Assembly: GCA_019637155.1 (NCBI GenBank)
Contig: JAHBWE010000009.1
Span: 186,001-250,000 of the forward strand
Direction: 5' to 3'
DNA: 64,000 bases
Source of the DNA: Labilithrix sp.
GTDB lineage: Bacteria; Myxococcota_A; Polyangia; Polyangiales; Polyangiaceae
The notes under the pieces are model-generated. The model had not been told where the DNA came from and searched no databases. It was given only the letters and a program-made list of their open reading frames with translations. Position 1 is the first letter of the stretch; the number at the start of each line of letters is the position of its first letter. This document shows positions 32,955-48,362 of this stretch, piece after piece. The position numbers and the translations under genes are program-made.

Positions 32955-33956
32955 GTGTCCTCGGCCCTGGAATCCGAGCCCCCGCCCTCCGTGCGGCTGA
33001 AGCGCTCGTCCGTGGTCAAGGGCCTCATCAAGACGATCCGGCCACACCAGTGGGTGAAGAACCTGTTCGTGATGGCGCCGATGTTCTTCCACAAGGACCT
33101 CTTCGGCACCTCCGTCGGGAGCGGCGATCCGACGCTGAACCTGATGGTCGCGGGGAAGGCCTTCGCCGCGACGGCGGTGTTCTGCCTCCTCGCGGGCGCG
33201 GTCTACACGATCAACGACCTCGTCGACGTCGAGGCCGATCGCATCCACCCGGTGAAGCGCGAGCGACCGATCGCGAGCGGCGTCGTCCCGGAGAACATGG
33301 CGCGCGGCTTCGCCGGGCTCCTCGTCGTCCTCGCGTTCGCGATCAGCCTCGGCACGCTCCGCCTCCACGAGGGGACGCTCAACTGGGCGTTCACCGGCGT
33401 CGCCGCGCTCTATTTCGTCGAGAACATCGCCTACAGCTTCAAGCTCAAGAAGGTCGCGTTCCTCGACGTCGGTCTCATCTCGTTCGGCTTCGTGCTCCGC
33501 GTCCTCGCCGGCGGCTACGCGACGGAGACGAAGGTGAGCTGGTACATGCTCGCGTGCACGGCGGGCATCGCGCTCTTCCTCGGCTTCGGCAAGCGCCGGC
33601 ACGAGCTCGAAGGCGCCACCGCGGGCAAGCAGCGCGCGGCGCTCGAGGCGTACACGAAGCGGTCGCTCACGGTGGCCCTCGCCGTCACGGGCATCGCGAC
33701 CGCCGCGACGTACGTGGCCTACACGCTCGACAAGGACACGGAGGCGTTCTTCCAGACCGACAAGCTCTGGTTGACCGCGCCTTTCACGCTCTTCGGCATC
33801 TATCGCTTCCTCATGTTGGTCTCCGGCCGCGCCGGCCGCGGCCGCAAGGCGGAGAGCCCGACCCAGGAAATGCTGAGCGACGTCCCGTTCGTGCTGAACC
33901 TCGTCATCTGGGTCCTCATCGTCGTCGCGATCGTCTACCGCCTGCGCCCCGGCTGA
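32955..33956 (+). CDS. UbiA-family prenyltransferase, decaprenyl-phosphate phosphoribosyltransferase-like
   Basis: About 333 residues, with eight to nine membrane helices. The N-terminal IRPHQWVKNLFVMAPMFF and the diagnostic NDLVDVEADRIHPVKRERPIASG carry the first Asp-rich motif (NDxxDxxxD) of UbiA enzymes. The second motif region reads KVAFLDVGLISFGFVLRVLAGGYA. The pattern matches bacterial homologues of mycobacterial Rv3806c, which transfers 5-phosphoribose onto decaprenyl phosphate. The GTG at 32955 is favoured because similarity starts shortly after; an in-frame ATG at 32907 adds 16 residues of atypical sequence. It stands alone, divergent from the DUF3857 operon, so the downstream sugar pathway is not visible. 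Confidence 0.88.
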   Translation: MSSALESEPPPSVRLKRSSVVKGLIKTIRPHQWVKNLFVMAPMFFHKDLFGTSVGSGDPTLNLMVAGKAFAATAVFCLLAGAVYTINDLVDVEADRIHPVKRERPIASGVVPENMARGFAGLLVVLAFAISLGTLRLHEGTLNWAFTGVAALYFVENIAYSFKLKKVAFLDVGLISFGFVLRVLAGGYATETKVSWYMLACTAGIALFLGFGKRRHELEGATAGKQRAALEAYTKRSLTVALAVTGIATAATYVAYTLDKDTEAFFQTDKLWLTAPFTLFGIYRFLMLVSGRAGRGRKAESPTQEMLSDVPFVLNLVIWVLIVVAIVYRLRPG

Positions 33957-33997: not shown

Positions 33998-35062
33998 ATG
34001 CGCCTGGGTGGGATCGTGCTTCTCTTTGTGCTCGGGCTCGGGTGCAAGTCGGCGGCGGTGAACGTTCCGGTCGCGGACGAGAGCTCCATCACCGCCGACG
34101 ATGACGGGCCGTTCGATCCGAAGACCGGGGACGAGATCGCGGAGCTCTTCGCGCGCGTGATGCGCTCGCGGCCGCCGCCGGTGAAGCGCGCGGTGTTCCT
34201 CAAGCCCCACGCGTGCGCGACGGCGAAATTCGACATTTCCGCCGATCTGCCCGAGCGCCTCAAGGTCGGCCTCTTCGCGACGCCGGGGACGCACGACGCG
34301 TGGGTCCGCATCTCGAGCGACACCTCGCCGGCGACGCCGGACAAGGCGAACAGCACGGTGGGCTTCTCGCTGAAGGTGCTCGGCGTGCCGGGCACGAAGA
34401 TCCTCGCCGGCGAGGAGGACGCGCAGACGCACGATTTCCTCACGCAGAACCACGACGTCTTCTTCGTCGACACGGCGCAGGACTTCCTCGAGTTCACGCG
34501 CGCCATCTTCGATCGCACGCTCGACCAGTACCTCGCCGCGCACCCGACGTTCGACCAGATCCTCAAGGACATGGAGAAGCCGGTCGAGAACGCGCTCGCC
34601 ACGCGCTACTGGTCGACGCAGCCGTACCGCTTCGGCGACAAGGACTACGTGAAGTACGCGGTGCGCCCGTGCTCGGCGTGGCCGCCGGAGCCTCCCGCGG
34701 AGGACGAGCCGAGCTACATCCGCGCGCGCGTCGAGCGTGACCTCGCCGCGAGCGACGCGTGCTTCGATCTCCAGGTGCAGCTCCGCGGCGACGACGCCAA
34801 CGCGTTCCCGCTCGACAAGGCGACCGTGCGCTGGGACGAGTCGGTGAGCGCGCCGCAGACGGTGGCGCGGATCACGATCGCGAAGCAGGACGTCGCCGCG
34901 AACGAGGCCGCCTGCGAGAACATGTCGTTCACGGCGTGGCACGCGCTGCCGGAGCATCGCCCGGTCGGCAGCATCAACAAGGCGCGCGGCATCGCGTACA
35001 AGAAGCTCGCCGACGAGCGGCGCACGAAGAACAACGTCCCGATCCGGGAGCCGCAGCCATGA
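33998..35062 (+). CDS. catalase-fold lipoprotein
   Basis: About 354 residues from ATG at 33998. The lipobox VLGLGC predicts a lipidated exported protein. The body has the catalase-like haem-peroxidase core seen in proteins associated with quinoprotein oxidases: TPGTHDAWVRISSDTSPAT, the segment NSTVGFSLKVLGVPG and THDFLTQNHDVFFVD. Full catalase activity cannot be claimed: the classical catalase His-Asn pair and proximal Tyr region are not clearly recognisable. Its stop overlaps the start of the LodA-like oxidase, an enzyme that makes H2O2, so the local role is plausibly peroxide removal; this is inference. Confidence 0.82.
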   Translation: MRLGGIVLLFVLGLGCKSAAVNVPVADESSITADDDGPFDPKTGDEIAELFARVMRSRPPPVKRAVFLKPHACATAKFDISADLPERLKVGLFATPGTHDAWVRISSDTSPATPDKANSTVGFSLKVLGVPGTKILAGEEDAQTHDFLTQNHDVFFVDTAQDFLEFTRAIFDRTLDQYLAAHPTFDQILKDMEKPVENALATRYWSTQPYRFGDKDYVKYAVRPCSAWPPEPPAEDEPSYIRARVERDLAASDACFDLQVQLRGDDANAFPLDKATVRWDESVSAPQTVARITIAKQDVAANEAACENMSFTAWHALPEHRPVGSINKARGIAYKKLADERRTKNNVPIREPQP

Positions 35063-37065
35063 GCGATCCGAAGATCACACGCCGTCAGCTCATCGGCGGA
35101 GCCGCGGCGGGCGCCGCCCTTGGCGTCGCGTGCCGGCGGGACTACTTCGCGCAGTCGGAGTCGCAGCTCAACGGGGACGAGCAGATCGTCCGCGCCGTCA
35201 TCCACCCCGGCATCGGCGTCGCGCGCGTCGGCAACAGCGCCGAGGGCTTCTTCATCGGGCCCGAGGTCGTGGAGCCCACGATCACGGAGGTGGGGCAGAG
35301 CCGCGACGGGGCGGGCGCGCTCAAGCGGCAGGCCGCGCGCTTCCGCATCTACGGCTACAACGCGCAGGGGCAGATCGTCCGTGAGATCACGGGCGACAAC
35401 GCCGACGTCGACTGGTTCGTGCAGCTCGCGAACAAGAAGGCGGCCTGGTACCGCTTCATCGCGGCGATGGACCTGCCGGAGTCCTCGACCCTGAAGTGCA
35501 TCCGCCGCAACGCGGGCGTCACCGATCGCGCGTCGCTCGTCGCGGGCGGCGGCACGAAGACGATCAAGGGCAAGAGCATCTCGGGTCCGGCCTACCGCTT
35601 CGACACGAGGCTCTTCGGCGCGCCGGTCTCGCTCGGCGAGGTCCGCACCGACGAGCACGGCCGGCTCCTCGTCCTCGGCGGCCTCGGCAAGGCGGGCTCG
35701 CCCGAGAACAAACCGATCTACGATCCGCGCGACGGCGACAGCTTCAACAACGCGGACGGCTGGTGGGACGACATCGCGGACGGTCCCGTCAGCGCGGTGG
35801 TGCGCCTCGGCGGCCGGCAGATCCCGGTCGAGCCGGCGTGGGTCATCGTCGGTCCGCCGAACTACGCGCCCGACGTCATCGGCTGGCGCACGATGCACGA
35901 TCTCCTCGTCGACACGTTCGTCGACGCGGGCATGCTCGCGCTTCCGGCCACCACGTCGTTCACGAAGGACGTGCTCCCGGCGCTGCGCCGGCTCTCGAAC
36001 CTGCAGTGGGTGAACAGGGGCTTTTCGGAGGGCTACCGCAAGGGCGTCCAGTTCGACTTCGACGACGCGACGAGCATCGCGAACCTGAACCGGCGCGACG
36101 CCGACAACAAGGGATTCCGCGAGCAGATCCGGAGCTCCTTCCGCCCGCCGGGCAAGGCGCGCCGCGACTGGCCGTGGATCTACGGCGACGCGTTCGGCAC
36201 CTTCGATCAGTCGCCGGCGGTCGATCTCTCGGTCGGGCATCTCCGCTCGCTCCACCTCGAGCGCTGGGCGAACGGCGACTTCATCGACGACTGGGACCCG
36301 ACCGCGAAGCCGCTCCGCGCGCTCGAGCAGGTGCCGCTCGGCGAGCAGCCCGCGATGCTCGACATGGCGGCGCTCCACTTCTGCCTCGCGGACGCGTTCC
36401 ACCCCGGCTGCGAGCTCACGTGGCCGATGCGCCACGCGACCATGTATTCTGCACCTTTCCGCGTCAAGCGCCGGCAGGAGAGCGACAAGGAGCCGGACTA
36501 CGGCCCCGAGCTCACGCAGGCGATCGCGCTCGGCCCGAACGGCCCGCTCCACGCGCAGGCGGCGGGCGACCTCACGCGCTGGATGGCGATGCCGTGGCAC
36601 GGCGACACGATCTTCTGCCGCTCCGGCTACGAGCCCCAATACGATCCGTATTTGCCGACGTTCTGGCCGGCGCGCGTCCCGAACCACGTGCTCACGGCGG
36701 AGGACTACGCGACCGCGATGAACACGTCGCTCCCGCGCGAGCAGCGCCTCGCCGCGTTCCGCAACCGCGCGAGCTGGGTGCGCCGCATGACGGGCGGCCC
36801 GCCCGCGCAGATGATGCAGATGGTCCGCGAGTGGGATCTCCTCGGCGTCGTCGAGGCGCGCCCCGGCCCCGCGAGCGATCCCGATCTCCCGGCGCAGATG
36901 TTCGTCGAGTCGCTCCCGCCGTCCGTCCGCGGCAGCGGCGGCAGCGTCCCGCTGGGCGAGACGGCCCCCCCCGGCAGCGCCGCGAGCGCAGCACAACAAG
37001 CCGGCTGGGACGACGAGGCCCAGCTCGAGGCTTTCCGTCAAATCCGCATCCGCCGCCCCCAATGA
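35059..37065 (+). CDS. LodA-like quinoprotein oxidase, putative CTQ cofactor, Tat-exported lipoprotein
   Basis: 668 residues. The N-terminus MSDPKITRRQLIGGAAAGAA with a following LGVAC is a twin-arginine signal with a lipobox, unusual in this family. The body begins VIHPGIGVARVGNSAEGFFI, typical of LodA/GoxA amino-acid oxidases that build a cysteine tryptophylquinone from their own side chains. Candidate cofactor residues are Cys451 in FHPGCELTWPMR and Trp513 in MAMPWHGDTIFC (Trp508 is close by); the spacing is close to the 65 residues of LodA. The reaction would be oxidative deamination with release of ammonia and H2O2; the substrate is unknown. The flavoprotein needed for cofactor maturation follows after a hairpin repeat. 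Confidence 0.88.
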   Translation: MSDPKITRRQLIGGAAAGAALGVACRRDYFAQSESQLNGDEQIVRAVIHPGIGVARVGNSAEGFFIGPEVVEPTITEVGQSRDGAGALKRQAARFRIYGYNAQGQIVREITGDNADVDWFVQLANKKAAWYRFIAAMDLPESSTLKCIRRNAGVTDRASLVAGGGTKTIKGKSISGPAYRFDTRLFGAPVSLGEVRTDEHGRLLVLGGLGKAGSPENKPIYDPRDGDSFNNADGWWDDIADGPVSAVVRLGGRQIPVEPAWVIVGPPNYAPDVIGWRTMHDLLVDTFVDAGMLALPATTSFTKDVLPALRRLSNLQWVNRGFSEGYRKGVQFDFDDATSIANLNRRDADNKGFREQIRSSFRPPGKARRDWPWIYGDAFGTFDQSPAVDLSVGHLRSLHLERWANGDFIDDWDPTAKPLRALEQVPLGEQPAMLDMAALHFCLADAFHPGCELTWPMRHATMYSAPFRVKRRQESDKEPDYGPELTQAIALGPNGPLHAQAAGDLTRWMAMPWHGDTIFCRSGYEPQYDPYLPTFWPARVPNHVLTAEDYATAMNTSLPREQRLAAFRNRASWVRRMTGGPPAQMMQMVREWDLLGVVEARPGPASDPDLPAQMFVESLPPSVRGSGGSVPLGETAPPGSAASAAQQAGWDDEAQLEAFRQIRIRRPQ

Positions 37066-37159
37066 TCAGGGCCGCAACGCGCCCCGAACGCGACGCGCGA
37101 GCCTGGGATTGGGCGTCAGGGACCCCAGAACCGGCCGCGGAGCGCGCGAGGGCAGGGTC

Positions 37160-37264
37160 GGGCGGAGCCCCAGAAGCGGCCGCTTCAGCGGGCGCGAAGC
37201 GCCCCGAGCGCGCAGCGCGAGGGCCGTGTCTGGGGTGGGGTGTCGGGGCGAAGCCCCGACGTTG
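37160..37264 (+). repeat. intergenic hairpin repeat, copy R3
   Basis: Forward copy of the repeat family between the oxidase and its flavoprotein. Conserved CCCAGAAGCGG and GCGCGAGGGCCGTGTCTGG are followed by a terminal stem at 37242-37260 whose arms are GTCGGGGC / GCCCCGAC around GAA. Each arm is one pair shorter than at 1.4 and 24.06 kb. The terminal GTTGA contains the TTG used as start of the next gene. The segment before it, 37068-37159, is GC-rich and repetitive, with no gene seen. Confidence 0.8.
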
Positions 37265-38491
37265 AACAACTGGGACGTTGCGGTCGTGGGGGGAGGGCCG
37301 GGCGGCGCGATCGCGGCGTACGTGCTCGCGCGGGCGGGGCGGCGCGTGCTCCTTGTCGACGACGACGCGCTGGTCGAGGGCCGGGTCATCGGCGAGTCGT
37401 TGCCGGCGATCGCGGGGCATTTGCTCGGCGAGCTGGAGCTGCGTGGGCTCCTCGGCGTGCACGCTCCGGCGTTCGGCAACCTGTCGTCGTGGGGGAGCGA
37501 CGACCTCGAGGCGACGGACTTCATCCACGATCCGCACGGGCACGGCTGGCACCTCGATCGCGCGAGGTTCAACCGCGACCTCCGCGAGGCCGCCGTCGCC
37601 GCGGGCGCGACGCTGCGCGCGACCCGCCTCCGCGACGCGACGCGCGGCCCCGACGGCTGGGCGCTCCGCTTCACCGACGCGGCGGCGACGGAGACCGCAG
37701 CGTGCATCATCGACGCCACCGGCCGCCGCGCCACGATCGCCCGCCGCGAAGGCGCAACACGCACGCGTGACGACGACCTCCTCGCGCTCTACGCGTGGAC
37801 GTCACGACCCGCCCTCCCCAGCTCGCGGCCGCCGGAGTCCCGCGCCGCGGTGTCGTTGGACGCGCCATCCAGCCCTGGGCCGTCGGAGTCCCGCGCCGCG
37901 GCGATGCCGCCCGACCCTTCCAGTCCACCGGAGTCGCGCGAGGTGCACGGCGCGCCGCCCCCGGGGCCTCGCGGTGATACGCGCACGCTGGTCGAGGCGA
38001 CGGCGAGGGGTTGGTGGTACACCGCGCCGTTGCCGGACGGCGTGCACGTCGTGGTGCTCCACGTCGGCGAGGTCGATGCGCGCGCGATGCGCGATGAGCC
38101 CGCGCGGTGGAGGGACGCGCTCGCGGCGACGCGGTTCGTGTCGGCGCGGCTCGCGGGCGCGACGTTCGCGGGGCCGCCGCAGGTGACCGAGGCGTGCGGC
38201 GCGCGGCTCGATACGTTCCTCGGTCGTGGCTGGGTCGCGACCGGCGACGCGGCGCTCTCCTTCGATCCGGTCGCGGCGCAGGGACTGTTCAATGCACTCT
38301 ACACGGGCATGAAGGCGGGCATCGCGGTGGACGCCGCGCTCCGCGGCGACCCCAAGGAGCTCGCCGCGTACGCGCGTCGTCTCGAGGAGATCCGCGCGGC
38401 GTACGTCGAGCGTCATCGCTACGTCTACATGCTCGAGTCCCGCTTCTCCGGCGAGCCATTCTGGGCCGCGCGCCGCCGCGAAATGGCGTGA
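37262..38491 (+). CDS. LodB-like FAD-dependent oxidoreductase
   Basis: About 409 residues from a TTG. The start NNWDVAVVGGGPGGAIAAYV is a dinucleotide-binding fold with GxGxxG, followed by GRVIGESLPAIAG and GWVATGDAALSFDPVAAQGL, the second FAD-binding GD motif; this is the tryptophan-halogenase-like flavoprotein class to which LodB belongs. LodB is required to make the tryptophylquinone of the partner oxidase, which lies 196 bases upstream. An insertion of about 50 residues near 180-235, Pro/Ser/Ala-rich with repeated PPESRAA-like units, splits the substrate domain. No ribosome site is evident because the start sits in the repeat; an ATG does not occur nearby. Confidence 0.85.
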   Translation: MNNWDVAVVGGGPGGAIAAYVLARAGRRVLLVDDDALVEGRVIGESLPAIAGHLLGELELRGLLGVHAPAFGNLSSWGSDDLEATDFIHDPHGHGWHLDRARFNRDLREAAVAAGATLRATRLRDATRGPDGWALRFTDAAATETAACIIDATGRRATIARREGATRTRDDDLLALYAWTSRPALPSSRPPESRAAVSLDAPSSPGPSESRAAAMPPDPSSPPESREVHGAPPPGPRGDTRTLVEATARGWWYTAPLPDGVHVVVLHVGEVDARAMRDEPARWRDALAATRFVSARLAGATFAGPPQVTEACGARLDTFLGRGWVATGDAALSFDPVAAQGLFNALYTGMKAGIAVDAALRGDPKELAAYARRLEEIRAAYVERHRYVYMLESRFSGEPFWAARRREMA

Positions 38492-38527: not shown

Positions 38528-39289
38528 ATGGCTGCCGCCGCCCCCGCCGCCGACTCGCTCACCGCCAAGCCTGGGGCGTGGGTCGATCTCGGGCTCACCC
38601 TGCCGATCTTCCTCGTCTATCACCTCGCGGTCGTGTTCCTCGGCGTGCAGAACGCCACCGACGTCGTGACCGGCACGCTGCTGAGCTTGAGCGCCGGCAA
38701 CAAGACGACGTACCTCCTCTCCACGCTCGCGATCGGCGTCATCTTCGCCGGCACCTTCGCGCTCGCCGGACGCGGGCAGGCGTTCCGCCCGCGGAAGTTC
38801 CTCCAGATCGCGATCGAGGGCGTCGTCTACGCCTTCACGATGGCGGTCTTCGCGAGCTACGTGGTGGGCAGCATCTTCGCGGGGCCGTCGTCGATCCGAG
38901 ACGAGGGGCGCTTCGTCGGCTTCATCATGTCGCTCGGCGCCGGGTTCTACGAAGAGCTCACGTTCCGCGTGATCCTCTTCGGGCTCGGCGCGAAGGTCCT
39001 CGTGAAGGTGTTCGGGAACCAGAAGGTCGAGCTCGCCGGCACGCAGATCGTGACGCGCTTCTCCTTCCGGTCATGGATGGTGATGTTCGGCTGGGCGGTC
39101 GCGAGCGCGCTCGTGTTCAGCGGCGTCCACTACGTCGGCTCCATGTCCGATACGTTCCACCTCACGAGCTTCACCTTCCGCGCGGTGCTCGGTCTCGTGC
39201 TCACGCTCATCTTCGTCACGCGCGGCTTCGCGGCCGCGGTGTGGACCCACGCCATCTACGACGTCTGGGTCCTCGTCTTCCACGCGTGA
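38528..39289 (+). CDS. CPBP-family intramembrane metalloprotease
   Basis: 253 residues with seven to eight membrane helices. The family motifs are all seen: GAGFYEELTFRVILF (EExxxR), FSGVHYVG (catalytic His region) and AVWTHAIYDVW (HxxxD). CPBP/CAAX-type proteases act inside the membrane on prenylated or small membrane proteins; several protect against self-made bacteriocins. The target here is unknown. It starts 36 bases after the flavoprotein stop and might be cotranscribed. Confidence 0.9.
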   Translation: MAAAAPAADSLTAKPGAWVDLGLTLPIFLVYHLAVVFLGVQNATDVVTGTLLSLSAGNKTTYLLSTLAIGVIFAGTFALAGRGQAFRPRKFLQIAIEGVVYAFTMAVFASYVVGSIFAGPSSIRDEGRFVGFIMSLGAGFYEELTFRVILFGLGAKVLVKVFGNQKVELAGTQIVTRFSFRSWMVMFGWAVASALVFSGVHYVGSMSDTFHLTSFTFRAVLGLVLTLIFVTRGFAAAVWTHAIYDVWVLVFHA

Positions 39290-39295
39290 GCAGGA

Positions 39296-39634
39296 TCACT
39301 CGGCGGTGAGCGCGCACTTGCCGTCGACGCATCCCAGCGACTGCGGGAGGCAGGCCTGCGTGCACAGCACGCTGCTCTCCGCGCATTCCTTGACCACGGC
39401 GTCGTAGTCGGCCTTGGCCGCGTCACGGCGAACCGCCGCGCTGTCGCAGCAGCTCGCGCAGTCCTTGACCGCGTCGACGATCATGCAGTCGGCGACCGAG
39501 GTGCAAGCGGAGTCGTACCTCGTGGGATCGAACGAGCGCGGCGACGACGGTGGCGGCGTGGTGCTCGCGTCGTCGTTGCCGCACGCGCCGACGATCGCGA
39601 CCAACACGACCAAGCCCCGGATGCAGCGCACCAT
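39296..39634 (-). CDS. small Cys-rich lipoprotein
   Basis: About 112 residues from ATG at 39634; the upstream open frame is Arg-rich and lacks similarity. Signal MVRCIRGLVVLVAIVGAC ends in a lipobox. After GNDDASTTPPPSS, the mature part has about nine Cys in the pattern CTSVADCMIVDAVKDCASCC and later CTQACLPQSLGC. The same (S/T)xxDC...CC arrangement occurs in the lipoprotein at 44.6 kb. Function unknown. Divergent from the Imm21 gene with 91 bases between. Confidence 0.82.
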   Translation of the reverse strand: MVRCIRGLVVLVAIVGACGNDDASTTPPPSSPRSFDPTRYDSACTSVADCMIVDAVKDCASCCDSAAVRRDAAKADYDAVVKECAESSVLCTQACLPQSLGCVDGKCALTAE

Positions 39635-39725
39635 TCGACGAGCATATCGCACGCGTCGTGGAAAAGGGCGCTCGACCACCTCCGCTCGCAGACGTAGCGC
39701 GTCGAGGATCTGATATGCCCGTCGG

Positions 39726-40253
39726 ATGGCGAAGAAGGACACGCTGACCTACGTGGAGACCGAAGGCGGCCCCTTCGTCCTCCTCCCCCTCGAGCTCAAG
39801 AAGGCGTGGAAGGGCGCCGGTGACGATGACGACGATGACGACGACGAGAGTGACTACGAACGGGCGGAGGCGTTCGTGTCCACCGTCGGTGTGCTCGACG
39901 TCGGCAAGGGCAAGGCGCTCGTCCTGGGGGAGGCGGAGGTGACGGCCTACCGCGCGACCAAGGACGGAGGGGTCTTCATCCAGCGTGTGTTCGGAGACGA
40001 GGACGCGGCCGTCATTCGTGCCGTGGACGGAGCGCTGGCGTCGGGAAAGTGGAAAGACGCGAAGCTCGAGCTGCTCGTCGCTAAAAAGGGCAAGCTCGCC
40101 CTGTTCGACTCGGCGTGTGCATACGAAGACGCGGACGAAGACGAGATCCTCGAGGTCACGCTCGCCCCCGGCCGGTACGCGATCAAGACGGCTCGCGTCA
40201 AGTCGAAGGAGGTCGAGGCGGGCCTCGTTCGGCTCGTCCGGCTGCCGAAGTGA
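39726..40253 (+). CDS. Imm21-family immunity protein
   Basis: 175 residues. YVETEGGPFVLLPLELKKAW, then DYERAEAFVSTVGVLDVGKG and KALVLGEAEVTAY, reproduce the Imm21 pattern (ESxGGPLxLLP...DYxRA...VGxGxALVLGDEP), a family encoded next to polymorphic-toxin genes. A poly-Asp tract (eight Asp, residues 33-40, from a GAC/GAT repeat) is inserted between the first strand and SDYERA. The C-terminal half (FDSACAYED, ILEVTLAPGRYAIKTARVK) is a second small beta domain. It opens a four-gene island; no toxin gene is adjacent. Cytoplasmic, no signal peptide. Confidence 0.82.
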   Translation: MAKKDTLTYVETEGGPFVLLPLELKKAWKGAGDDDDDDDDESDYERAEAFVSTVGVLDVGKGKALVLGEAEVTAYRATKDGGVFIQRVFGDEDAAVIRAVDGALASGKWKDAKLELLVAKKGKLALFDSACAYEDADEDEILEVTLAPGRYAIKTARVKSKEVEAGLVRLVRLPK

Positions 40254-40299
40254 CGTCGTTCTCGATTCACCCCCGCGCATGCCGGCGCGATGATGGGCC

Positions 40300-41559
40300 G
40301 TGGCCGCGAAGAAGAAGACGCCGGTGGCGAGCAAGGGCCCATCGCTCTTGAGCGCGATCGACGACGCGCTCAAGACCGGAAAGAACGCCCACTTCAAGGC
40401 GGTGTCCGACGCCGCCGAGCGCGCATCGCTGGAGGAGCTCCTCGCCGCGACGACGGCGCTCCTCACGCGCACGTCGTGGCCAGCCGACATCCACGCCCTA
40501 GCGGGACAGGAGAAGAACCTCTTCCAGCTGCGTCGCGCGTCGATCCTCGGCTCGACCTTCGCGTCGGCGTTCAAGCGGCGCGGAGGGCCGGCCGCCGACC
40601 GCGCGCTCATCGAGCTCGTCGAGAGCCCGGAGGAGATGATCCAGGCCTACGCAGAGGAGGTCGCGATCGGCGGGAATCTGGAGGAGCGCACCGCACCGGC
40701 GAGCAAGACGGTCCTCGCTCGTCTCGCGACGCACATGCGGAAGGGCGATCCGCTCTCTGGGGCGGCGGCGGTGGCCGCACACCTGCTCGGCGAGGAGGAC
40801 GTCGGGCGACGGCTCGCCGCCCTCGACGACGGCAAGGCGGCGTTCGGACACGCGCTGTCGAAGTTCGCCGCCCTGTCCCGCGGGCATGTTCCTCTTACGC
40901 CGGCGCTCTGGGATCTCTACCGGAGGCGCTACGGACGAAACATCATCGTGATCGCGGAGGAGCTCGAGGCGCGCGCCCCCGTCGACGTGCTCGTCCACGC
41001 CCTCGCGACGACGGACACCTGCGACGCGTCGATCCTCGTCGGCCTGGAGCTGCGCGCCGCCGCGAGCTCGGTGCCGGCCCTGCGCGCGGTGCTGCCCAAG
41101 GTGTCGAGGCGGCCCGTCGCGAAGAAGCTCTCGAAGCTCGTGAAGAAGCTCTCGTCCCGCGGCGCCGCGACGACGGCGCCGGTGCCGCCGGTAGCAGGTG
41201 TCGTGGCGACCGATGGTGGGCCGATCCTCCTCGGCTCCAAGCGCGCCCTCGCCAAGTGGCGCGGCTCGCTCCCCGACATGCCGCCCGAGGGCGACTACCA
41301 CGATGCGTACGAGGCGAGATCGTTCGAGGCGATCTCACGGGGCGGCGAAGACGTCCTCGTCCTGCGCTCGAGGGTCGCGGAGCTCCTCGAGCCAGGCGAT
41401 GGATCCTTCTGGCTCTTGCTCGAAGGCACCCTCGAGGGTCGCGGCCTCGTGCTCCTCGACGCGGCGTACTCCCTCGCCCGCGCGCGCGACGCGAGCAAGC
41501 GTCTCCTCGCGTTGCCCACGAAGGGCGGCGACCACGTTCTCTCGAAGGGGGTTGCGTGA
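40300..41559 (+). CDS. HEAT-like protein with C-terminal Imm21-like domain
   Basis: 419 residues from GTG. Residues 40-285 are helical repeats (LEELLAATTALLTRT, LIELVESPEEMIQAYAEEVA, VLARLATHMRKGDPLSGAAA) consistent with HEAT/ARM-type solenoids. After a Lys-rich stretch, residues 310-410 read GGPILLGSKRALAKWRG, then GDYHDAYEARSFEAIS and VLVLRSRVAELL, which aligns by eye to the neighbouring Imm21 protein. This looks like a fusion of a scaffold with an immunity fold. The stop overlaps the following membrane-protein gene (GTGA). No exact family is recognised for the N-terminal part. Confidence 0.72.
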   Translation: MAAKKKTPVASKGPSLLSAIDDALKTGKNAHFKAVSDAAERASLEELLAATTALLTRTSWPADIHALAGQEKNLFQLRRASILGSTFASAFKRRGGPAADRALIELVESPEEMIQAYAEEVAIGGNLEERTAPASKTVLARLATHMRKGDPLSGAAAVAAHLLGEEDVGRRLAALDDGKAAFGHALSKFAALSRGHVPLTPALWDLYRRRYGRNIIVIAEELEARAPVDVLVHALATTDTCDASILVGLELRAAASSVPALRAVLPKVSRRPVAKKLSKLVKKLSSRGAATTAPVPPVAGVVATDGGPILLGSKRALAKWRGSLPDMPPEGDYHDAYEARSFEAISRGGEDVLVLRSRVAELLEPGDGSFWLLLEGTLEGRGLVLLDAAYSLARARDASKRLLALPTKGGDHVLSKGVA

Positions 41560-42065
41560 AGGGCCGTGACGTCGAGATCGCCGCTCAGGTCCGCGCCGGC
41601 TTCGTCGCGTGCACGGTCTACGCGGTGACGATGGTCGCGGCGGGCGCGTGGCTGTGGCTCGCCCCGTCACGCGGCGGCGTCGCGTACGCGCTCGGCGTGC
41701 TCTGCCTCGTCGTCACATGCGTGGTCCTCCATGTGTGCGGCAAGCCGATCGCCGCGCGGACGGGCTACGACGGCTCGATGATGTTCTTCATCGTGTGGTT
41801 CTTCGCGCTCTTCGGGGTGTTCATGCCGGTCATCGGCTCGGTCCTCTGTCTCGTCGCCGCCGTCTGGCGTCTGAGGGGCAAGGTCGGCGGCGTGACGCTC
41901 ACCTTCGGCGAGCACGGCGAAGGCGGCAGCAAGCACTACCCCGCGATCCAGCTCCGCGAGCGCGAGGGCGTCCCGTTGGGGCTCACGTACGTCGTCCTGG
42001 CGCTCGGTTGGCCGCTCGTCGTGTTCCCGTTGATCCCGAAGGAGCTCTACGCCTCGGCGGGGTGA
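41556..42065 (+). CDS. small integral membrane protein
   Basis: About 169 residues from a GTG overlapping the previous stop. Four membrane helices: VACTVYAVTMVAAGAWLWLA, YALGVLCLVVTCVVLHVCG, MMFFIVWFFALFGVFMPVIG with VLCLVAAVWRL, and LGLTYVVLALGWPLVVFPLI. A short soluble loop (GGVTLTFGEHGEGGSKHYPA) lies between the third and fourth. No family is recognised. Translational coupling with the HEAT-Imm21 protein suggests a membrane-localised partner. Confidence 0.75.
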   Translation: MKGRDVEIAAQVRAGFVACTVYAVTMVAAGAWLWLAPSRGGVAYALGVLCLVVTCVVLHVCGKPIAARTGYDGSMMFFIVWFFALFGVFMPVIGSVLCLVAAVWRLRGKVGGVTLTFGEHGEGGSKHYPAIQLREREGVPLGLTYVVLALGWPLVVFPLIPKELYASAG

Positions 42066-42074
42066 GCCGTCACG

Positions 42075-43331
42075 ATGAGACCCTTCGCGATCGATCCGAA
42101 GTCCGAGGAGCTGTTCCAGCGAGGCTGGCCCGAGCTGCGCACGCTGGTCGACGACCATCCTCACCTGAAGGACCCTGCGAAGTGGAGCCAGAAGGCGTTC
42201 CACTCGTACGCCGCGGACATCTATCACGTGGCTTGGCCGCGCGAGGTCGCGCACCGGTTCGTGCGCATCATGGGGATGCCGCGGAAGGAGCTCCCCCTCG
42301 CAGAGAGGCTCGCCGCGATCGCCGAACAGGCGAAGGTGGCGGGCCCCGTCACCGAGGCGGAGGCTCGCAGCGTCCTGGCTCGGATCGTTCACCCGGAGTC
42401 GAGGCATCCGGAGAACAACGTCAAGAACCTGCTCTTCTTGCTCGAGGCGATGGTCGGCGGCGACGTCGTCTTCGACGCCGCGCTCTCCGTCTACGAGGAG
42501 CTGAGCGACGCCCAGCTCGAGCACGACAACCTCCACGATCCGCTCTACGTCGCCGACTGGCTCGGGTTCGTCCTGCGTCGCCTCGATCGGGCGGCGCAGG
42601 AGGCAGGGCGCGCCCGCGTCGCGGCCCTGCTCGGCCGCTGGGGGAAGCACTCCGTCTGGAGGGAGCTCACGCGGGTGATCGGCGGCGCCCCCGCCGTCCT
42701 CGCGACCAAGTCCCCGCGCGCAGCCGGCATCTGGCTGCACACCCTCCACCACGTCGACGACGCCAAGTTCATCGTCGAGAACGCGCATCGAGACAACGTC
42801 GGCTCCTTCGACATCCAGCTCGCCTTCCGTGGGGGCGAGCCGGTCCTCGAGTGGTACGCCAAGCGTCTGCCGAAGCTGCCGAAGGAGCGCCTCGCCGGCT
42901 TCGTCGAGGAGCTCGCGCTGGTCGCGTCGCCGAAGGCCGTCGAGATGCTTCGGGTCCTGCACCAGAAGAAGAGCGTGAGCGCGCGCGTCGCCGAGGTCTT
43001 GGCGACGCGCGGCGAGGCTCCGCAGCCGTCGGCGCCGGCGAAGACGCTCGGTCCGGAGAAGCGCTTCGACGAGCTGTCCGCGTGGATCCAGAAGGCGCTG
43101 AAAGCGGCGCGCGGCGACGCCGCGAAAGAGGAGGCCGCGCTCCTCGCCGCGGTCGATCGCTACGCGGAGATCCGCAGCGACGCCGGCGAACCGCCGGGCG
43201 AGTTCGTCGTGCAGTTCTTCATGGTCGACGGCGTGGCGCTCGAGAAGGAACGCCCTGCGCCGCTCACGAAGCTGCGGCCGAAGCCGACCGACGCCGAGTG
43301 GGCGCGATGGACCGAGATCTTGCAGCGCTGA
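42075..43331 (+). CDS. helical-repeat protein of unknown function in the immunity island
   Basis: 418 residues, soluble and largely helical. Units such as EAEARSVLARIVHPESRHPE, VFDAALSVYEELSDAQLEHD, and PKLPKERLAGFVEELALVAS suggest HEAT-like repeats; the start MRPFAIDPKSEELFQRGWPE and the C-terminus KLRPKPTDAEWARWTEILQR are distinctive. No catalytic motif or known domain is recognised. It lies 9 bases after the membrane-protein gene and ends the island. A role alongside the Imm21 proteins is inferred from position. Confidence 0.75.
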   Translation: MRPFAIDPKSEELFQRGWPELRTLVDDHPHLKDPAKWSQKAFHSYAADIYHVAWPREVAHRFVRIMGMPRKELPLAERLAAIAEQAKVAGPVTEAEARSVLARIVHPESRHPENNVKNLLFLLEAMVGGDVVFDAALSVYEELSDAQLEHDNLHDPLYVADWLGFVLRRLDRAAQEAGRARVAALLGRWGKHSVWRELTRVIGGAPAVLATKSPRAAGIWLHTLHHVDDAKFIVENAHRDNVGSFDIQLAFRGGEPVLEWYAKRLPKLPKERLAGFVEELALVASPKAVEMLRVLHQKKSVSARVAEVLATRGEAPQPSAPAKTLGPEKRFDELSAWIQKALKAARGDAAKEEAALLAAVDRYAEIRSDAGEPPGEFVVQFFMVDGVALEKERPAPLTKLRPKPTDAEWARWTEILQR

Positions 43332-43340
43332 ACGCGATCG

Positions 43341-44576
43341 TCATGCTCGCCGCGACGGCTCCGTCGGTTCGCGGTCGAGGCCGAAGGCGAGGAGCATCGC
43401 GATGAACATGCCGACCGCGCCGAGGACGTATGGCGAGCGCGGCCCCAGGGTCCCGTACACCCAGCCGCCGAGGCCCGGGCCGAACATGCGCGCGAGGCTC
43501 GCCGCGGACTGGTTCGTACCGAGCGTGGCGCCCTGCGCGCTCGGGTCGGCGCGCTTGGAGATGAACGCGCCGGTGCTCGGCTGCGTCATGCCGTTGCCGA
43601 GGGCGAGGAGGGCGCCGCCGACGTAGAGGAGCGGCTTGCCCGCCGTCGCCGAGAGCGCGATGACGGCGAACGCCGCCGCCTGGATCCCGGTGCCGACGCG
43701 GATGAGCAACGCCTCGCGGAAGCGGCGCGACAGCGGGCGAATGAGGCCGCCCTGGACGCTCGCCGCGACGACGCCGATGAACGCGAGCACGATGCCCGTG
43801 TCGAGCGGCTCCATCTGGAAGCTGTCCTTGCTGAAGAAGCGGAACGTCTGGTCGAGGACGGTGAAGGACAGCGTGATCGCGAAGTTCACCGCGACCGCGA
43901 TCGCGATGCCGGGGCGCGCGAACGCGTCGCGGGCGGCGCCGAAGTCGAGCGGCGAGAGCGAGCGCTTCGTCTCCGCGCGGCGCTCCGGCGGCAGCGACTC
44001 CTTCAAGCCGACGAAGGCCCAGCCGAGGTTCACGCACGAGAGCGAGGCCGCGACGAAGCAGGGCACCGCGCCGGTGCGCCCGCCGATCGGGATCGCGGAG
44101 AGCGCGCCGCCGATCGCGGGGCCGAGGATGAAGCCGAGGCCGAAGGCCATCCCGATGAGCCCCATCCCCTTCGAGCGCTCCTCCGGCTTCGTCACGTCGG
44201 CGATGTACGCGCTCGCGGTGCCGAGGTTCGCGGTCGCGATGCCGCTCGCCGCGCGCGCCGCGAAGAGCCACGCGATGTGCTCCGCGCGGAGGAGCGCGAA
44301 GCCGAGGCCGAACATGCCGAGCGCGGTCGCGGTGATGCTCCACAACAGCACCGGTCGCCGGCCGACGCGGTCCGAGACGCGGCCCCACACCGGCACGAAC
44401 ACGAACTGCATCAGCGAGTAGATCGAGGCGAGGAGCGTGCCGGTGAGCTCGCTCGTGCCGAACGTCGAGCGCGACTCCTCCGCGAGGAACGGCAAGACGA
44501 GGCTGAACCCGAGGATGTCGAGGAAGACGATCAGGAAGATCGCGCCAAGGCCGGGTGTCTTTTGCGGCGATGACAT
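43341..44576 (-). CDS. MFS transporter, TetA-like drug/proton antiporter class
   Basis: About 411 residues from ATG at 44576 with 12 membrane helices. Motif A in the loop between helices 2 and 3 is GRVSDRVGRRPVLLWSI; the antiporter-type motif C is GLGFILGPAIGGALS. The start GLGAIFLIVFLDILGFSLVLPFL resembles the TetA subgroup. Likely proton-driven export of a small hydrophobic compound; the substrate is unknown. Stands alone, convergent with the immunity island (9-base gap) and divergent from a lipoprotein gene. Upstream in-frame extension to 45305 is antisense to the DUF2252 gene and rejected. Confidence 0.9.
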   Translation of the reverse strand: MSSPQKTPGLGAIFLIVFLDILGFSLVLPFLAEESRSTFGTSELTGTLLASIYSLMQFVFVPVWGRVSDRVGRRPVLLWSITATALGMFGLGFALLRAEHIAWLFAARAASGIATANLGTASAYIADVTKPEERSKGMGLIGMAFGLGFILGPAIGGALSAIPIGGRTGAVPCFVAASLSCVNLGWAFVGLKESLPPERRAETKRSLSPLDFGAARDAFARPGIAIAVAVNFAITLSFTVLDQTFRFFSKDSFQMEPLDTGIVLAFIGVVAASVQGGLIRPLSRRFREALLIRVGTGIQAAAFAVIALSATAGKPLLYVGGALLALGNGMTQPSTGAFISKRADPSAQGATLGTNQSAASLARMFGPGLGGWVYGTLGPRSPYVLGAVGMFIAMLLAFGLDREPTEPSRRA

Positions 44577-44630
44577 CGACGGGGAGTCCGGCTTAGCAGG
44601 AGTCCGCCGCTTCGAGTAGTCTCGCGCCCC

Positions 44631-44963
44631 ATGCTCTCGCGTCTCGCCGTGGTCCTCGCCGCCCTTGCCTTCGTCGCCGTCGCGTGCGGCGGCTCGGAGG
44701 ACAAGGGCAAGACTCCCTCCGGCGCGCGGGCGTCGTGCGCGAGCGACTCGGACTGCACGGTCAGCGACTCCTCGGGCTGCTGCAAGTCGTGCCCCGACCA
44801 GCCCTTCGGGATGCCGGTGCTCGCGTTCGAGCAGCAGAAGAACAAGTGCGCGGTGGTCGAGTGCGCTGCTTCTTCGGATCGCATCGAGTGTCCCAAGGTC
44901 GAGCCCACCGACGCGTTCGTCGCCTACTGCAAGGAAGGCACCTGCGCGGCGCGGAAGAAGTAG
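44631..44963 (+). CDS. small Cys-rich lipoprotein
   Basis: 110 residues. Signal peptide MLSRLAVVLAALAFVAVAC with lipobox. The mature chain has CASDSDCTVSDSSGCCKSCP, then CAVVECAASSDRIEC and CKEGTCAARKK: about ten Cys in a pattern matching the lipoprotein at 39.3 kb, hence a likely paralogue. Probably disulfide-bonded in the envelope. Function unknown. Cotranscribed with the DUF2252 gene, 11 bases away. Confidence 0.83.
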   Translation: MLSRLAVVLAALAFVAVACGGSEDKGKTPSGARASCASDSDCTVSDSSGCCKSCPDQPFGMPVLAFEQQKNKCAVVECAASSDRIECPKVEPTDAFVAYCKEGTCAARKK

Positions 44964-44974
44964 CATTCGGAGGC

Positions 44975-46162
44975 GTGAAGACGGCGCGCGCACTCGTCCT
45001 CGGCGCCGTGCTCGCGTGCGGCCCGGCGGCGGTCGCGCCGGCGCCGGGGCCCACGGCTCCGCGTCCCGACACGTTCGCGATCGACGGCGCCGCGCTCCTC
45101 GCGAAGGACCCCCACGTCGCGCGCAAGGTCGGGAGGACGCCGTACACGTTCTTCCGCTACCAGAACCGCGCGTTCGCGGAGCGGGTCTGCAATCGATGGG
45201 CGAGCACCATCCCGCGCATGCCGCTCGTCCACGTCCACGGAGACGCTCACCTCGAGCAGTACGCCGTCGCGGAGGGCGGTCGCGGTCTCGCCGACTTCGA
45301 CGCATCAGGCGAAGGTCCGCCTGTCATCGATTTTGCAAGATTCTCCGCATCGCTCGCGCTCGCGCGTCCCTACGACCACGCCGGGACGAAGGCGGCGATC
45401 GCGGCGCTCTTCCGCGGCTACTCGCGTGCGCTCATCGACGCGCGTGCGACGATGAACGAGCCGCGCGTCGTCATGCGTCTCCGCGAGCGCTTCGAGCCGA
45501 CGCGGCTCGAGTGGCTCGATCGCATGACGCTGCTGATCTCGCCCTCCGATCCGGCCGATCACGAGGTCTTCGCTCAGGCGTGGAGGGGCTTCGTGGGTGA
45601 GATGTGCTCGCTCGATCCTTCGCTCGACGAGGACTTCTTCACCGTGAAGGCCGGCGGCAAGCTCGAGCTCGGGATCGGGAGCGCCCACGCCGAGAAGTTC
45701 CTCGCCCGCATCGAGGGCCCCACCTCCGCGCTGGACGACGACATCCTCCTCGAGGCGAAGGCGCTCGAGCCGGGCGCGCTCGCGAGCTGCATGCGCGGCG
45801 TCGATCTCGACGCGACGCGGGTGATCGAGACGCAGCTCCAGATGTCGGCCGCGCCCGAGCGCTTCCTCGGCGCGATGACGATCCGCGGCAAGCCGTACTA
45901 CACGCACGCGTGGCAGGTCTTCTACAAGGAGCTCTCCGTCGACGACGTCCACACCGCCGCGGAGCTCGCGGAGCTCGCGGAGGACGTCGGCCTCCAGCTC
46001 GGCCGCGGCCACGCGAAGTCGAAGGACGCGGCGCGCGTCCCGAAGCTCCGCGCGGAGCTGCTCGAGACCGCGAAGCGCGTCGAGGCCGACGTCGTCGACG
46101 AGGCGTTCGAGCTCGCGCACGAAGTCTCGCTCGCGTGGGAGCAATACCGGCTCGCGCTGTGA
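44975..46162 (+). CDS. DUF2252-family lipoprotein
   Basis: About 395 residues from GTG; the lipobox VLGAVLACG makes it an exported lipoprotein. DUF2252 hallmarks: FFRYQNRAFAERVCNRW, VHVHGDAHLEQYAVAEGGRG, DFDASGEGPPVIDFARFSAS and a C-terminal RGHAKSKD. The GDxHxxN-like and DFD elements resemble the active site of kinase-like (APH-type) folds, but activity is unknown, and most family members are cytoplasmic, so a signal peptide is unusual. The start codon directly follows GGAGGC, spacing that is too short to be ideal. Confidence 0.82.
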   Translation: MKTARALVLGAVLACGPAAVAPAPGPTAPRPDTFAIDGAALLAKDPHVARKVGRTPYTFFRYQNRAFAERVCNRWASTIPRMPLVHVHGDAHLEQYAVAEGGRGLADFDASGEGPPVIDFARFSASLALARPYDHAGTKAAIAALFRGYSRALIDARATMNEPRVVMRLRERFEPTRLEWLDRMTLLISPSDPADHEVFAQAWRGFVGEMCSLDPSLDEDFFTVKAGGKLELGIGSAHAEKFLARIEGPTSALDDDILLEAKALEPGALASCMRGVDLDATRVIETQLQMSAAPERFLGAMTIRGKPYYTHAWQVFYKELSVDDVHTAAELAELAEDVGLQLGRGHAKSKDAARVPKLRAELLETAKRVEADVVDEAFELAHEVSLAWEQYRLAL

Positions 46163-46175
46163 TCCGGTCGCGAGG

Positions 46176-46910
46176 TCAGAGCTTCCGCGCGTGCACGAAG
46201 GCCTCGAGGTTCCCCTTCGGCCCCTCGAGGACGCTGTCGGCGGTGCCGAGGAGCTCGAAGCCCGCCGCTCTCACGTCGGCGGCCGCGTCGTCGATCGCGC
46301 GCCGGCGCACCTCCGGATCCTTCACCACGCCGCGCGATCGCGCCGCCTCGTCGCGACCGACCTCGAACTGCGGCTTCACGAGCGCGACGAGCTCGCCGCG
46401 CGTCGCCGTGCAGCGCGCGATCGCGGCCGCGAGCTTGCCGAGCCCGATGAAGGAGGCGTCGACGACGACGAGCTCGCACGGCCCCCCGATCGCGTCGGGC
46501 GTGAGCGTGCGCGCGTTCGTGCGCTCGAGGTTCTGCACGCGCGGATCGACGCGCAGCGAGTGGGCGAGCTGTCCGTACCCGACGTCGACGGCGGCGACCG
46601 ACGCCGCGCCGCGCTGGAGGAGGCAGTCGGTGAAGCCCCCCGTCGACGCGCCGAGGTCGAGGCAGCGCTTGCCGCGCGGGTCCACACCGAACGCATCGAG
46701 CGCCCCCGCGAGCTTCACTCCGCCACGCGACACGTACGGATGGTCCTCTCCGCGCACGGCGATCGCCGCGTCCTCGGGCAACATCGCCCCCGCCTTGTCG
46801 ACGCGCACCTCCCCGACGTACACCTTGCCCGCGAGGATGAGCGCCTGCGCCTTCGCCCGCGTCACCACGAGGCCCCGCTGCACGAGCAACTGATCGGCGC
46901 GCGTCTTCAA
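46176..46910 (-). CDS. tlyA: TlyA-family rRNA ribose methyltransferase
   Basis: About 244 residues from a TTG (LKTRADQLLVQRGL) with GAGGACCCC upstream; the longer open frame to 47018 is Arg/Pro-rich and unrelated. An N-terminal S4 RNA-binding domain (TRADQLLVQRGLVVTRAKAQ) precedes an RrmJ/FtsJ-type methyltransferase with motif I CLDLGASTGGFTDCLLQRG, VVDASFIGLGKL and LVKPQFEVGRDEA. TlyA methylates 16S and/or 23S rRNA 2'-O positions, giving capreomycin sensitivity in mycobacteria. The gene converges on the DUF2252 gene (13-base gap). Confidence 0.92.
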   Translation of the reverse strand: MKTRADQLLVQRGLVVTRAKAQALILAGKVYVGEVRVDKAGAMLPEDAAIAVRGEDHPYVSRGGVKLAGALDAFGVDPRGKRCLDLGASTGGFTDCLLQRGAASVAAVDVGYGQLAHSLRVDPRVQNLERTNARTLTPDAIGGPCELVVVDASFIGLGKLAAAIARCTATRGELVALVKPQFEVGRDEAARSRGVVKDPEVRRRAIDDAAADVRAAGFELLGTADSVLEGPKGNLEAFVHARKL

Positions 46911-47124: not shown

Positions 47125-47988
47125 TCACTGGGCGGGGAGCTCGGGGTGGATGGCGCGGGCGAGGAGGGCGAGGCCGTCGCCGATGCGGGGGCCGGGGCGG
47201 AGGACGGACTCGTCCGCGATCGTGCGGACGCGGCCCTCCTTCACCGCGCGGACCGCGCTCCAGCCGGGCGCGTTCGCGTTCAGCCGCTCGGCTGCGTTCT
47301 CCTCCATCATCGCGGCGTTCACGACGACGTCCGGATCGAGGACGAGGACGCGCTCGGCTCCGATCGTGGGGTACGCGCCGCCCTCCTTGATCACGTTCGT
47401 GCCGCCCGCCTTCGCGATCATCTCGTCCGCGAAGCTGCCGGGGCCGGCGACGGAGAGCGGCGCGAGGCCGAACACGAGCAGCACCTTCGGCCGCGGTAGC
47501 TTCGCGACCGCGGTCACCGTCTCGTCGATGCGCGCGTGCAGCTTCGCGACCGCCGCGCGCGCGCCGTCCATACGCGCGGTCTTCTCGCCGAGGCCGAGGA
47601 GCATGTCGTCGATCGCGGCGAGCTTCTCGGTCTCGGGGAAATACGTGACGACGCCGCGCGCCTCGAGCTGCTGCGTGATCGCGTTGCCGGCCGGTCCGCG
47701 TGCCCCCACCACGAGGTCGGGACGGAGCCCGAGGATCGCCTCGAGCGACGGATCGACGTAGCCACCGACCTGCGGGAGCTTCGCGACCTCGGGCGGATGG
47801 TTGCAATAACGCGAACGCCCGACGAGGAGCGAGCCCGCGCCGATCGCGAAGACCGCCTCCGTCGTCGACGGCGAGAGCGAGACGATCCGCTCCGGCGCCG
47901 CCTTCTTCTTCGCCTCCGAGCGCGTGCACCCGAGCGTGGCGATCGCGGCGATCGCGGCGAGCACGAAGACGACGAACGCGCGCGTCAT
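47125..47988 (-). CDS. BtuF/FecB-like periplasmic binding lipoprotein
   Basis: About 287 residues from ATG at 47988, overlapping the previous stop (ATGA). Lipobox AIATLGC follows the hydrophobic segment AFVVFVLAAIAA. The fold is a class III substrate-binding protein: RIVSLSPSTTEAVFAIGAG, VGRSRYCNHPPEVAKLPQVG, LEAILGLRPDLVVGARG and the long linking helix. RYCNHPPE and the following VGGY resemble BtuF-type vitamin B12 binders, but cobalamin versus other metal chelates cannot be decided. No permease genes or cobalamin riboswitch are nearby, so it would depend on a transporter elsewhere. Confidence 0.87.
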   Translation of the reverse strand: MTRAFVVFVLAAIAAIATLGCTRSEAKKKAAPERIVSLSPSTTEAVFAIGAGSLLVGRSRYCNHPPEVAKLPQVGGYVDPSLEAILGLRPDLVVGARGPAGNAITQQLEARGVVTYFPETEKLAAIDDMLLGLGEKTARMDGARAAVAKLHARIDETVTAVAKLPRPKVLLVFGLAPLSVAGPGSFADEMIAKAGGTNVIKEGGAYPTIGAERVLVLDPDVVVNAAMMEENAAERLNANAPGWSAVRAVKEGRVRTIADESVLRPGPRIGDGLALLARAIHPELPAQ

Positions 47989-48362
47989 CAGGGCCCTGCG
48001 TCGCACGTGGCCGTGCCCGCCGAGAGGCTGCCCGTCGTCTCGACGTACGACACGCAGACCCACTCCCCGCGCGGACAGCGGCACGTCCAATAGGTCGGCC
48101 TCGTCGGATACTGCGTGCCGCCGTCGGCGCAGACCTCGTCGCGGGCGCTCGTCGAGAACTCGCACTCCGCGTCCGAGACGCAGGGGCCGCGCGGCGGGCC
48201 CTCCGGGCGGACGACATGCCGGTTCGTCTCCTGGCACTGCCGGTCGCGCGCCTGTGGCGTGGCCGGGGCGCGAGCGTCCGCCTCGACCGGCGCCGGCGCG
48301 TCGTCCCTCGTCTCTCCGCCGCACGCCGAGAGCAGGAGCGTAGTCACGACGACGTGCCGCAC
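47988..48362 (-). CDS. small Cys-rich lipoprotein
   Basis: 124 residues from GTG. The very short signal MRHVVVTTLLLSAC ends in a lipobox. An Asp/Ala/Pro linker leads to CVSDAECEFSTSARDEVCAD, TYWTCRCPRGEWVCVS and TATCDAGP, with eight Cys. The CVSDAEC element recalls CxSDxDC in the lipoprotein at 44.6 kb. Coupled by ATGA to the binding-protein gene, so possibly an accessory of that receptor. Function unknown. Confidence 0.75.
   Translation of the reverse strand: MRHVVVTTLLLSACGGETRDDAPAPVEADARAPATPQARDRQCQETNRHVVRPEGPPRGPCVSDAECEFSTSARDEVCADGGTQYPTRPTYWTCRCPRGEWVCVSYVETTGSLSAGTATCDAGP

What the first reader, a model, noticed from the sequence alone, without database searches (positions are those of the whole stretch)
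39726..43331. Imm21-type immunity island without a visible toxin
Four consecutive genes: Imm21-like protein, HEAT-like protein with Imm21-like C-terminus, four-helix membrane protein and a helical-repeat protein. Imm21 proteins counter polymorphic toxins, yet no toxin, VgrG, Rhs or T6SS gene is near. The two Imm21-like domains, one fused to a solenoid and coupled to a membrane protein, suggest either orphan-immunity stock or an uncharacterised system in which the solenoid is the working part.
Basis: partly seen in the sequence, partly recalled or inferred. Interest (0 to 1): 0.6.

Follow-up and report, generated by a model that had tools for sequence, protein, structure and literature searches.

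The report
Toxin-less immunity gene island
A myxobacterium carries a small acquired set of "antidote" genes without any poison gene; relatives of two of them sit beside the same DNA-cutting toxin elsewhere, so the set most likely protects the cell against a competitor's weapon.

Summary
The four genes are real, co-directional and packed like an operon. Gene 1 is a genuine Imm21 protein (PF15589, 7.2e-27). Gene 2 is a helical protein with a diverged Imm21-like C-terminus. Gene 3 is a small multi-helix membrane protein. Gene 4 is an alpha-solenoid of an unnamed family found in 38 of 317 genomes of the class. The operon lies in a 4.05-kb stretch inserted between a CPBP protease and an MFS transporter gene; in 10 of 10 relatives examined those two genes are neighbours. 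No toxin is in the window, and the toxin profile described here has no match in the genome. The likely target was found elsewhere. Gene-4 relatives lie near Rhs proteins ending in one nuclease type (CxxC-DHxPP-CxxC-Q), which matches the published motif of NGO1392-like HNH toxins, the listed partner of Imm21. A profile made from those toxins then hit three further toxins whose next gene is Imm21. Another genome fuses the gene-4 solenoid to an Imm21-like domain. Best reading: a heterogeneous polyimmunity locus (a known kind), with gene 4 as a new HEAT-type immunity family against the same nuclease family as Imm21. Protection is inferred, not shown; gene 3 remains unexplained.

The parts
39290..43340 (.). 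inserted segment (about 4.05 kb) between the CPBP protease gene (38528-39289 +) and the MFS transporter gene (43341-44576 -)
   Evidence: in 10 of 10 same-genus or same-family relatives the two flanking genes are direct neighbours (gap -31 to +79 bp) with none of these genes between them
39726..40253 (+). gene 1: Imm21 immunity protein, 175 aa
   Evidence: PF15589 E 7.2e-27; 55% identical to the Imm21 of G295
40300..41559 (+). gene 2: helical N-terminus (HEAT-like arrangement) plus diverged Imm21-like C-terminus, 419 aa, GTG start; candidate polyimmunity protein
   Evidence: local Imm21 HMM E 9.5e-10 at 302-400; intermediate homologue L055:7254-7775; AF2 helices 16-286, strands 298-404, low confidence
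41556..42065 (+). gene 3: membrane protein, about four TM helices, 169 aa, GTG start overlapping the stop of gene 2
   Evidence: hydropathy; relatives are membrane parts of zinc-ribbon proteins, G381 45% identity
42075..43331 (+). gene 4: alpha-solenoid, 418 aa, unnamed family with members beside Rhs toxins; C-terminal ~80 aa module shared with another protein of an Rhs operon
   Evidence: family in 38 of 317 genomes; AF2 pLDDT 88, all helical; HEAT/ARM-like matches at the level common for helical repeats; neighbours; C-terminal module
39296..39634 (-). small Cys-rich lipoprotein-like gene, divergent, inside the inserted segment; probably a passenger
   Evidence: gene call; absent between the flanking genes in relatives; not otherwise tested

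Best explanation
A horizontally acquired, toxin-less (orphan) heterogeneous polyimmunity operon. Genes 1 and 4, and probably gene 2, are cytosolic antidotes. Each would bind and neutralise a variant of one family of nuclease domain (CxxC-DH-CxxC-Q, NGO1392-like HNH) that competitors deliver on Rhs or other carrier proteins. Genes 1 and 2 carry Imm21-type domains; gene 4 is a HEAT-type solenoid immunity protein; gene 2 joins a solenoid to an Imm21-like domain, as a polyimmunity protein. Gene 3 is a membrane protein of unknown part and may be a passenger. Shown here: gene structure, Imm21 membership of gene 1, the insertion, and the repeated encoding of Imm21 and gene-4 relatives beside the same toxin family. 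Inferred: transcription as one unit, horizontal acquisition (from the empty site), toxin binding, protection, DNA as the target, and which gene covers which toxin subtype.
For: Gene-4 relatives lie near Rhs toxins in three genomes: G051 (same strand, two genes downstream), G410 (next gene, convergent), G239 (two copies beside the Rhs). All four Rhs proteins of those loci end in GCHxCG...DHxPP...PHCxxC..QG. A profile of only those four domains (A5) finds Imm21 as the very next gene in Enhygromyxa salina SWB007 (9 nt after the toxin), in G184 of another class, and on a Paraburkholderia caribensis plasmid (4-nt overlap). PMC3482391 lists Imm21 as a partner of NGO1392-like HNH toxins with exactly the CxxC, DH, CxxC, Q motif, and as a member of heterogeneous polyimmunity loci; it also lists HEAT repeats as an immunity category. 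G472 encodes a gene-4 solenoid fused to an Imm21-like domain; G333 and G477 encode other helical + Imm21 fusions. The locus matches the published description of polyimmunity loci: no toxin, one orientation, tiny gaps, different between relatives.
Against: No activity was tested. Most gene-4 and Imm21 relatives in the class stand alone without a toxin. The toxins were identified by motif; no Pfam or PDB model matches them. Gene 2's C-terminus falls short of the Pfam Imm21 cut-off and lacks part of the domain. Gene 3's relatives show no tie to immunity. Two A5-type toxins (G372, G369) have neither Imm21 nor a gene-4 relative beside them.
Confidence: 0.72

Rival explanations
1. A remnant: immunity genes left behind after a toxin locus was lost, or carried without present use, and decaying.
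For: No A5-type toxin in the genome; gene 2's Imm21-like domain is shortened; the locus is absent from relatives.
Against: All four frames are open with native-like codon use and tight spacing; no toxin fragment lies in the insert; the insert joins unrelated immunity types.
Confidence: 0.13
2. A separate, uncharacterised defence or signalling system in which the solenoids and the membrane protein act together and the Imm21 domains are sensors or adaptors.
For: Genes 2, 3 and 4 are tightly packed with a membrane protein between two solenoids; gene-4 solenoids are also fused to WGR and DUF7003 domains, which are not classical immunity domains.
Against: The four-gene order was not met in any neighbourhood examined; gene-3 relatives sit in other contexts; no PADLOC match.
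Confidence: 0.1
3. Gene 4 is a general protein-binding solenoid with housekeeping roles, and its closeness to Rhs toxins is incidental; only genes 1 and 2 are immunity.
For: Most of the 38 gene-4-family loci have no Rhs nearby; the family includes very large multidomain proteins in 12-13 Mb genomes.
Against: A5-type toxins are rare (about 8 credible loci in 134 genomes), so three gene-4 contigs within 5 kb of one would be about 0.004 by chance (hand estimate); fusion to an Imm21-like domain in G472; neighbours with SUKH-type genes in G477 and G480.
Confidence: 0.2

Closest known systems
Heterogeneous polyimmunity loci and polyimmunity proteins (Zhang et al. 2012, PMC3482391)
   Same: toxin-less run of co-oriented, closely spaced, unrelated immunity-type genes, variable between relatives; a fusion protein that includes an immunity domain
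   Different: small (three candidate immunity genes plus one membrane gene); includes a solenoid family without a Pfam model; no adjacent recombinase noticed
Imm21 (PF15589)
   Same: gene 1 scores far above the curated cut-off; WxG present; relatives directly follow CxxC-DH-CxxC toxins
   Different: gene 1 has YxxxE in place of YxxxC; gene 2's domain is shortened and below the cut-off
Imm-HEAT category of PMC3482391
   Same: gene 4 is a helical-repeat solenoid; relatives lie beside Rhs toxins
   Different: published partners are Ntox34 and Tox-REase-7, here an NGO1392-like HNH; no HEAT Pfam match
Tde5 with Tdi5a and Tdi5b (PMC13392607)
   Same: two unrelated immunity proteins against one bba-metal nuclease
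   Different: there both are encoded next to the cognate toxin and protection was shown; here no toxin, and only neighbourhood evidence

Membership tests
Imm21 (PF15589), gene 1 | score over the curated Pfam cut-off | tested here: met
   94.8 bits against 30.7, residues 8-162 over profile 1-157 of 159
Imm21 (PF15589), gene 1 | WxG motif (PMC3482391) | tested here: met
   WKG in the sequence
Imm21 (PF15589), gene 1 | YxxxC motif, called absolutely conserved in PMC3482391 | tested here: not met
   YERAE; its 55%-identical relative in G295 also lacks the Cys, as does at least one other aligned Pfam-passing match (L015), so the motif is not strict in these members. Filed as Imm21 on the Pfam definition only
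Imm21 (PF15589), C-terminus of gene 2 | score over the curated Pfam cut-off | tested here: not met
   no Pfam match; local HMM E 9.5e-10: called Imm21-like, not a member
Polyimmunity locus | no toxin or toxin cassette between the immunity genes | tested here: met
Polyimmunity locus | same orientation and small intergenic distances | tested here: met
   all +; gaps 46, -4 and 9 bp
Polyimmunity locus | content varies between close relatives | tested here: met
   empty site in 10 of 10 relatives
Polyimmunity locus | made of immunity genes | tested here: inconclusive
   gene 1 by family, gene 2 by a diverged domain, gene 4 by neighbourhood; gene 3 unassigned
Polyimmunity locus | genes confer protection | not testable with these tools
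   needs co-expression with a toxin domain
Imm-HEAT, gene 4 | HEAT-repeat fold | tested here: inconclusive
   confident alpha-solenoid, HEAT/ARM-like matches up to Z 8.2, a level common for helical repeats, no HEAT Pfam match
NGO1392-like / Tox-SuFu-Nuc HNH, for the neighbouring toxins in other genomes | CxxC, DH, CxxC, Q motif at the C-terminus of a carrier | tested here: met
   alignment A5 and the nine-sequence alignment; L030 lacks the second Cys of the first CxxC; no library model matched

The most novel reading that the evidence does not exclude
Gene 4 founds an undescribed HEAT-type immunity family. Together with Imm21 it gives layered, structurally unrelated protection against one nuclease-toxin family, assembled as an orphan operon and elsewhere as a single fused protein (G472), with each immunity type matched to a toxin subtype (Imm21 to the ARGPxRDF...GCHTCG subtype, the solenoid to the IDxAGxxYGCHSCG subtype).
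Probability: 0.35. Interest if true: 0.55.

Novelty: new member of a known kind. Interest (0 to 1): 0.42.

Why it matters
It gives an apparently toxin-less island a testable target and adds a solenoid family, without a Pfam model, to the immunity side of a widespread nuclease-toxin family. If both gene types act on one toxin family, it would be an orphan-locus parallel to the dual immunity recently shown for Tde5. The clean empty site also makes it a simple case for studying how antidote genes spread between predatory bacteria.

Tried and rejected
Known defence system: no PADLOC match. NCBIfam gave only sub-threshold hits. PilZ domain in gene 2: a 29% match to a PilZ-receiver protein in G046 was dropped, because the model predicts helices there, though at low confidence. 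Genome-wide pattern search with alignment A1 failed (too little conservation); a single-protein scan with the Enhygromyxa Imm21 returned only itself. A first Imm21 HMM was built on the wrong strand for minus hits and rebuilt. Solved structures: no relative of Imm21, of the gene-4 family or of the toxin domain. Foldseek and VIA gave only generic helical-repeat matches. No exact direct or inverted repeats beyond 9-10 bp link the insert ends, and no site-specific recombinase was noticed among the gene calls. Weak toxin-profile hits in G419 and G421 judged spurious. The Rhs neighbour of Imm21 in G515 (L182) has a different HNH-like end and was not counted. The gene-4 plasmid search found nothing.

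Full report
What is there. The window (70.6% GC) belongs to a 10.1-Mb, 46-contig genome of a myxobacterium-like organism; another genome of its class in this set is Enhygromyxa salina. Between a CPBP protease gene (38528-39289 +) and an MFS transporter gene (43341-44576 -) lie four + strand genes: 39726-40253, 40300-41559, 41556-42065 and 42075-43331, with gaps of 46, -4 and 9 bp. Codon-based gene calling finds the same four.

Gene 1 is Imm21 (PF15589, E 7.2e-27). Gene 2 has no Pfam match, but a myxobacterial Imm21 profile built without it hits residues 302-400 (E 9.5e-10). A free-standing protein of G476 links the two: 43-44% identical to gene 2's C-terminus and a PF15589 match at 2.7e-5, below the cut-off. 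Gene 2 keeps W-x-G and D-Y, but the domain is shortened. Its N-terminus is predicted helical at low confidence (pLDDT 66). Gene 3 has about four hydrophobic helices; its relatives, 8 of 317 genomes counting the window's own, include membrane parts of zinc-ribbon proteins. Gene 4 is a confident alpha-solenoid (pLDDT 88) of a family with no Pfam model, present in 38 of 317 genomes.

The locus is an insertion. The MFS gene was traced in relatives and ten neighbourhoods were read. In all ten, the CPBP and MFS genes are adjacent (gap -31 to +79 bp), so about 4.05 kb is extra in the window genome. The four-gene order was not met in any neighbourhood examined. The closest Imm21 (55% identical, G295) stands alone, and G295's gene-4 relative lies on another contig. 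No long repeats were found at the insert ends and no recombinase was noticed among the gene calls.

Where is the toxin? None in the window, and no A5-type toxin in the genome. Elsewhere the gene-4 family leads to one. In G051 a gene-4 relative lies two genes downstream of an Rhs protein on the same strand; in G410 it is the convergent next gene; in G239 two relatives lie beside an Rhs protein, and a further Rhs there is followed by an LRR-like gene and a protein sharing gene 4's C-terminal module. All four Rhs proteins end in GCHxCG ... DHxPP ... PHCxxC ... QG. This is the CxxC, DH, CxxC, Q signature that PMC3482391 gives for NGO1392-like (Tox-SuFu-Nuc) HNH toxins, whose listed partners include Imm21.

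That link was then tested without using Imm21. A profile of only these four toxin domains (A5) was searched in 134 genomes and in the fetched loci. It found further toxins. In three places the very next gene is Imm21: Enhygromyxa salina SWB007 (toxin stop about 9 nt before the Imm21 start), G184 of another class, and Paraburkholderia caribensis plasmid NZ_CP013104.1 (4-nt overlap, Rhs-type carrier). Two others (G372, G369) have different neighbours; in G372 these are a DUF1963 protein and a Cys-rich protein like one in G239. The Imm21-linked toxins share an ARGPxRDF ... GCHTCG front (L030 has GCHTSG), and the gene-4-linked ones mostly IDxAGxxYGCHSCG, which suggests subtype matching; the sample is small. 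A5-type toxins are rare (about 8 credible loci in about 1.1 Gb), so three of 38 gene-4 loci within 5 kb of one would be about 0.004 by chance (hand estimate). A5 was built from those loci, so that count is partly circular; the Imm21 result is not. The three Imm21 cases came from loci already fetched or found by Imm21 similarity, so they show that the pairing exists and recurs, not how common it is: most Imm21 loci in the class have no toxin beside them.

Further ties between solenoids and immunity domains: G472 encodes a gene-4 solenoid fused to an Imm21-like C-terminus; G333 and G477 encode other helical + Imm21 proteins; gene-4 relatives neighbour SUKH-type genes in G477 and G480, where the G480 one is a confirmed SMI1 + WGR protein; others are fused to WGR or DUF7003.

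Mechanism. PMC3482391 describes polyimmunity loci as toxin-less, co-oriented, closely spaced and variable between strains, serving as backup against toxins of non-kin, and describes polyimmunity proteins that fuse domains. The window fits. The likely function is cytosolic binding and neutralisation of incoming HNH nuclease domains by genes 1, 4 and perhaps 2. PMC13392607 shows that two unrelated immunity proteins can each inhibit one bba-metal nuclease, so two kinds of antidote for one toxin family is plausible. Shown: sequence families, insertion, toxin neighbourhoods. Inferred: binding, protection, substrate, subtype matching. Gene 3 is not explained.

Verdict. It is a new member of a known kind, with a probable new solenoid immunity family as the fresh element.

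Noticed in passing
window 44577-46175: A second stretch (Cys-rich small protein 44631-44963 + and a 395-aa protein 44975-46162 +) is extra relative to relatives, in which the MFS gene is directly followed by the orthologue of 46176-46910.
   Followed up: partly
window 33998-38491: The genes between 32907-33956 and the CPBP gene also differ between relatives, so the whole stretch looks like a turnover hot spot.
   Followed up: partly
window 39296-39634, 44631-44963, 47988-48362: Three small Cys-rich, lipoprotein-like genes lie within 9 kb, two of them inside the inserted stretches.
   Followed up: no
L042:9904-10287 and L194:10005-10424: A small family (127 and 139 aa, CGCCGK...YTEKH) sits downstream of A5-type Rhs toxins in two genomes: another candidate immunity protein without a Pfam match.
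   Followed up: no
L121:3463-4776: Gene-4 solenoid fused to an Imm21-like C-terminus (G472), a natural polyimmunity protein.
   Followed up: partly
L099:6498-9410 and L106:8244-12872: Gene-4 solenoid at the C-terminal end of very large proteins that also carry DUF7003.
   Followed up: no
L156:6806-8074: Gene 3's best relative is the C-terminal membrane part of a zinc-ribbon protein in a same-genus genome; gene 3 looks like that membrane part alone.
   Followed up: partly
L224 ([Kitasatospora] papulosa plasmid NZ_CP108282.1): Imm21 gene behind a DddA-like deaminase toxin and Imm1, with a HEAT-repeat protein a little further on: Imm21 and HEAT proteins near each other in another phylum.
   Followed up: no
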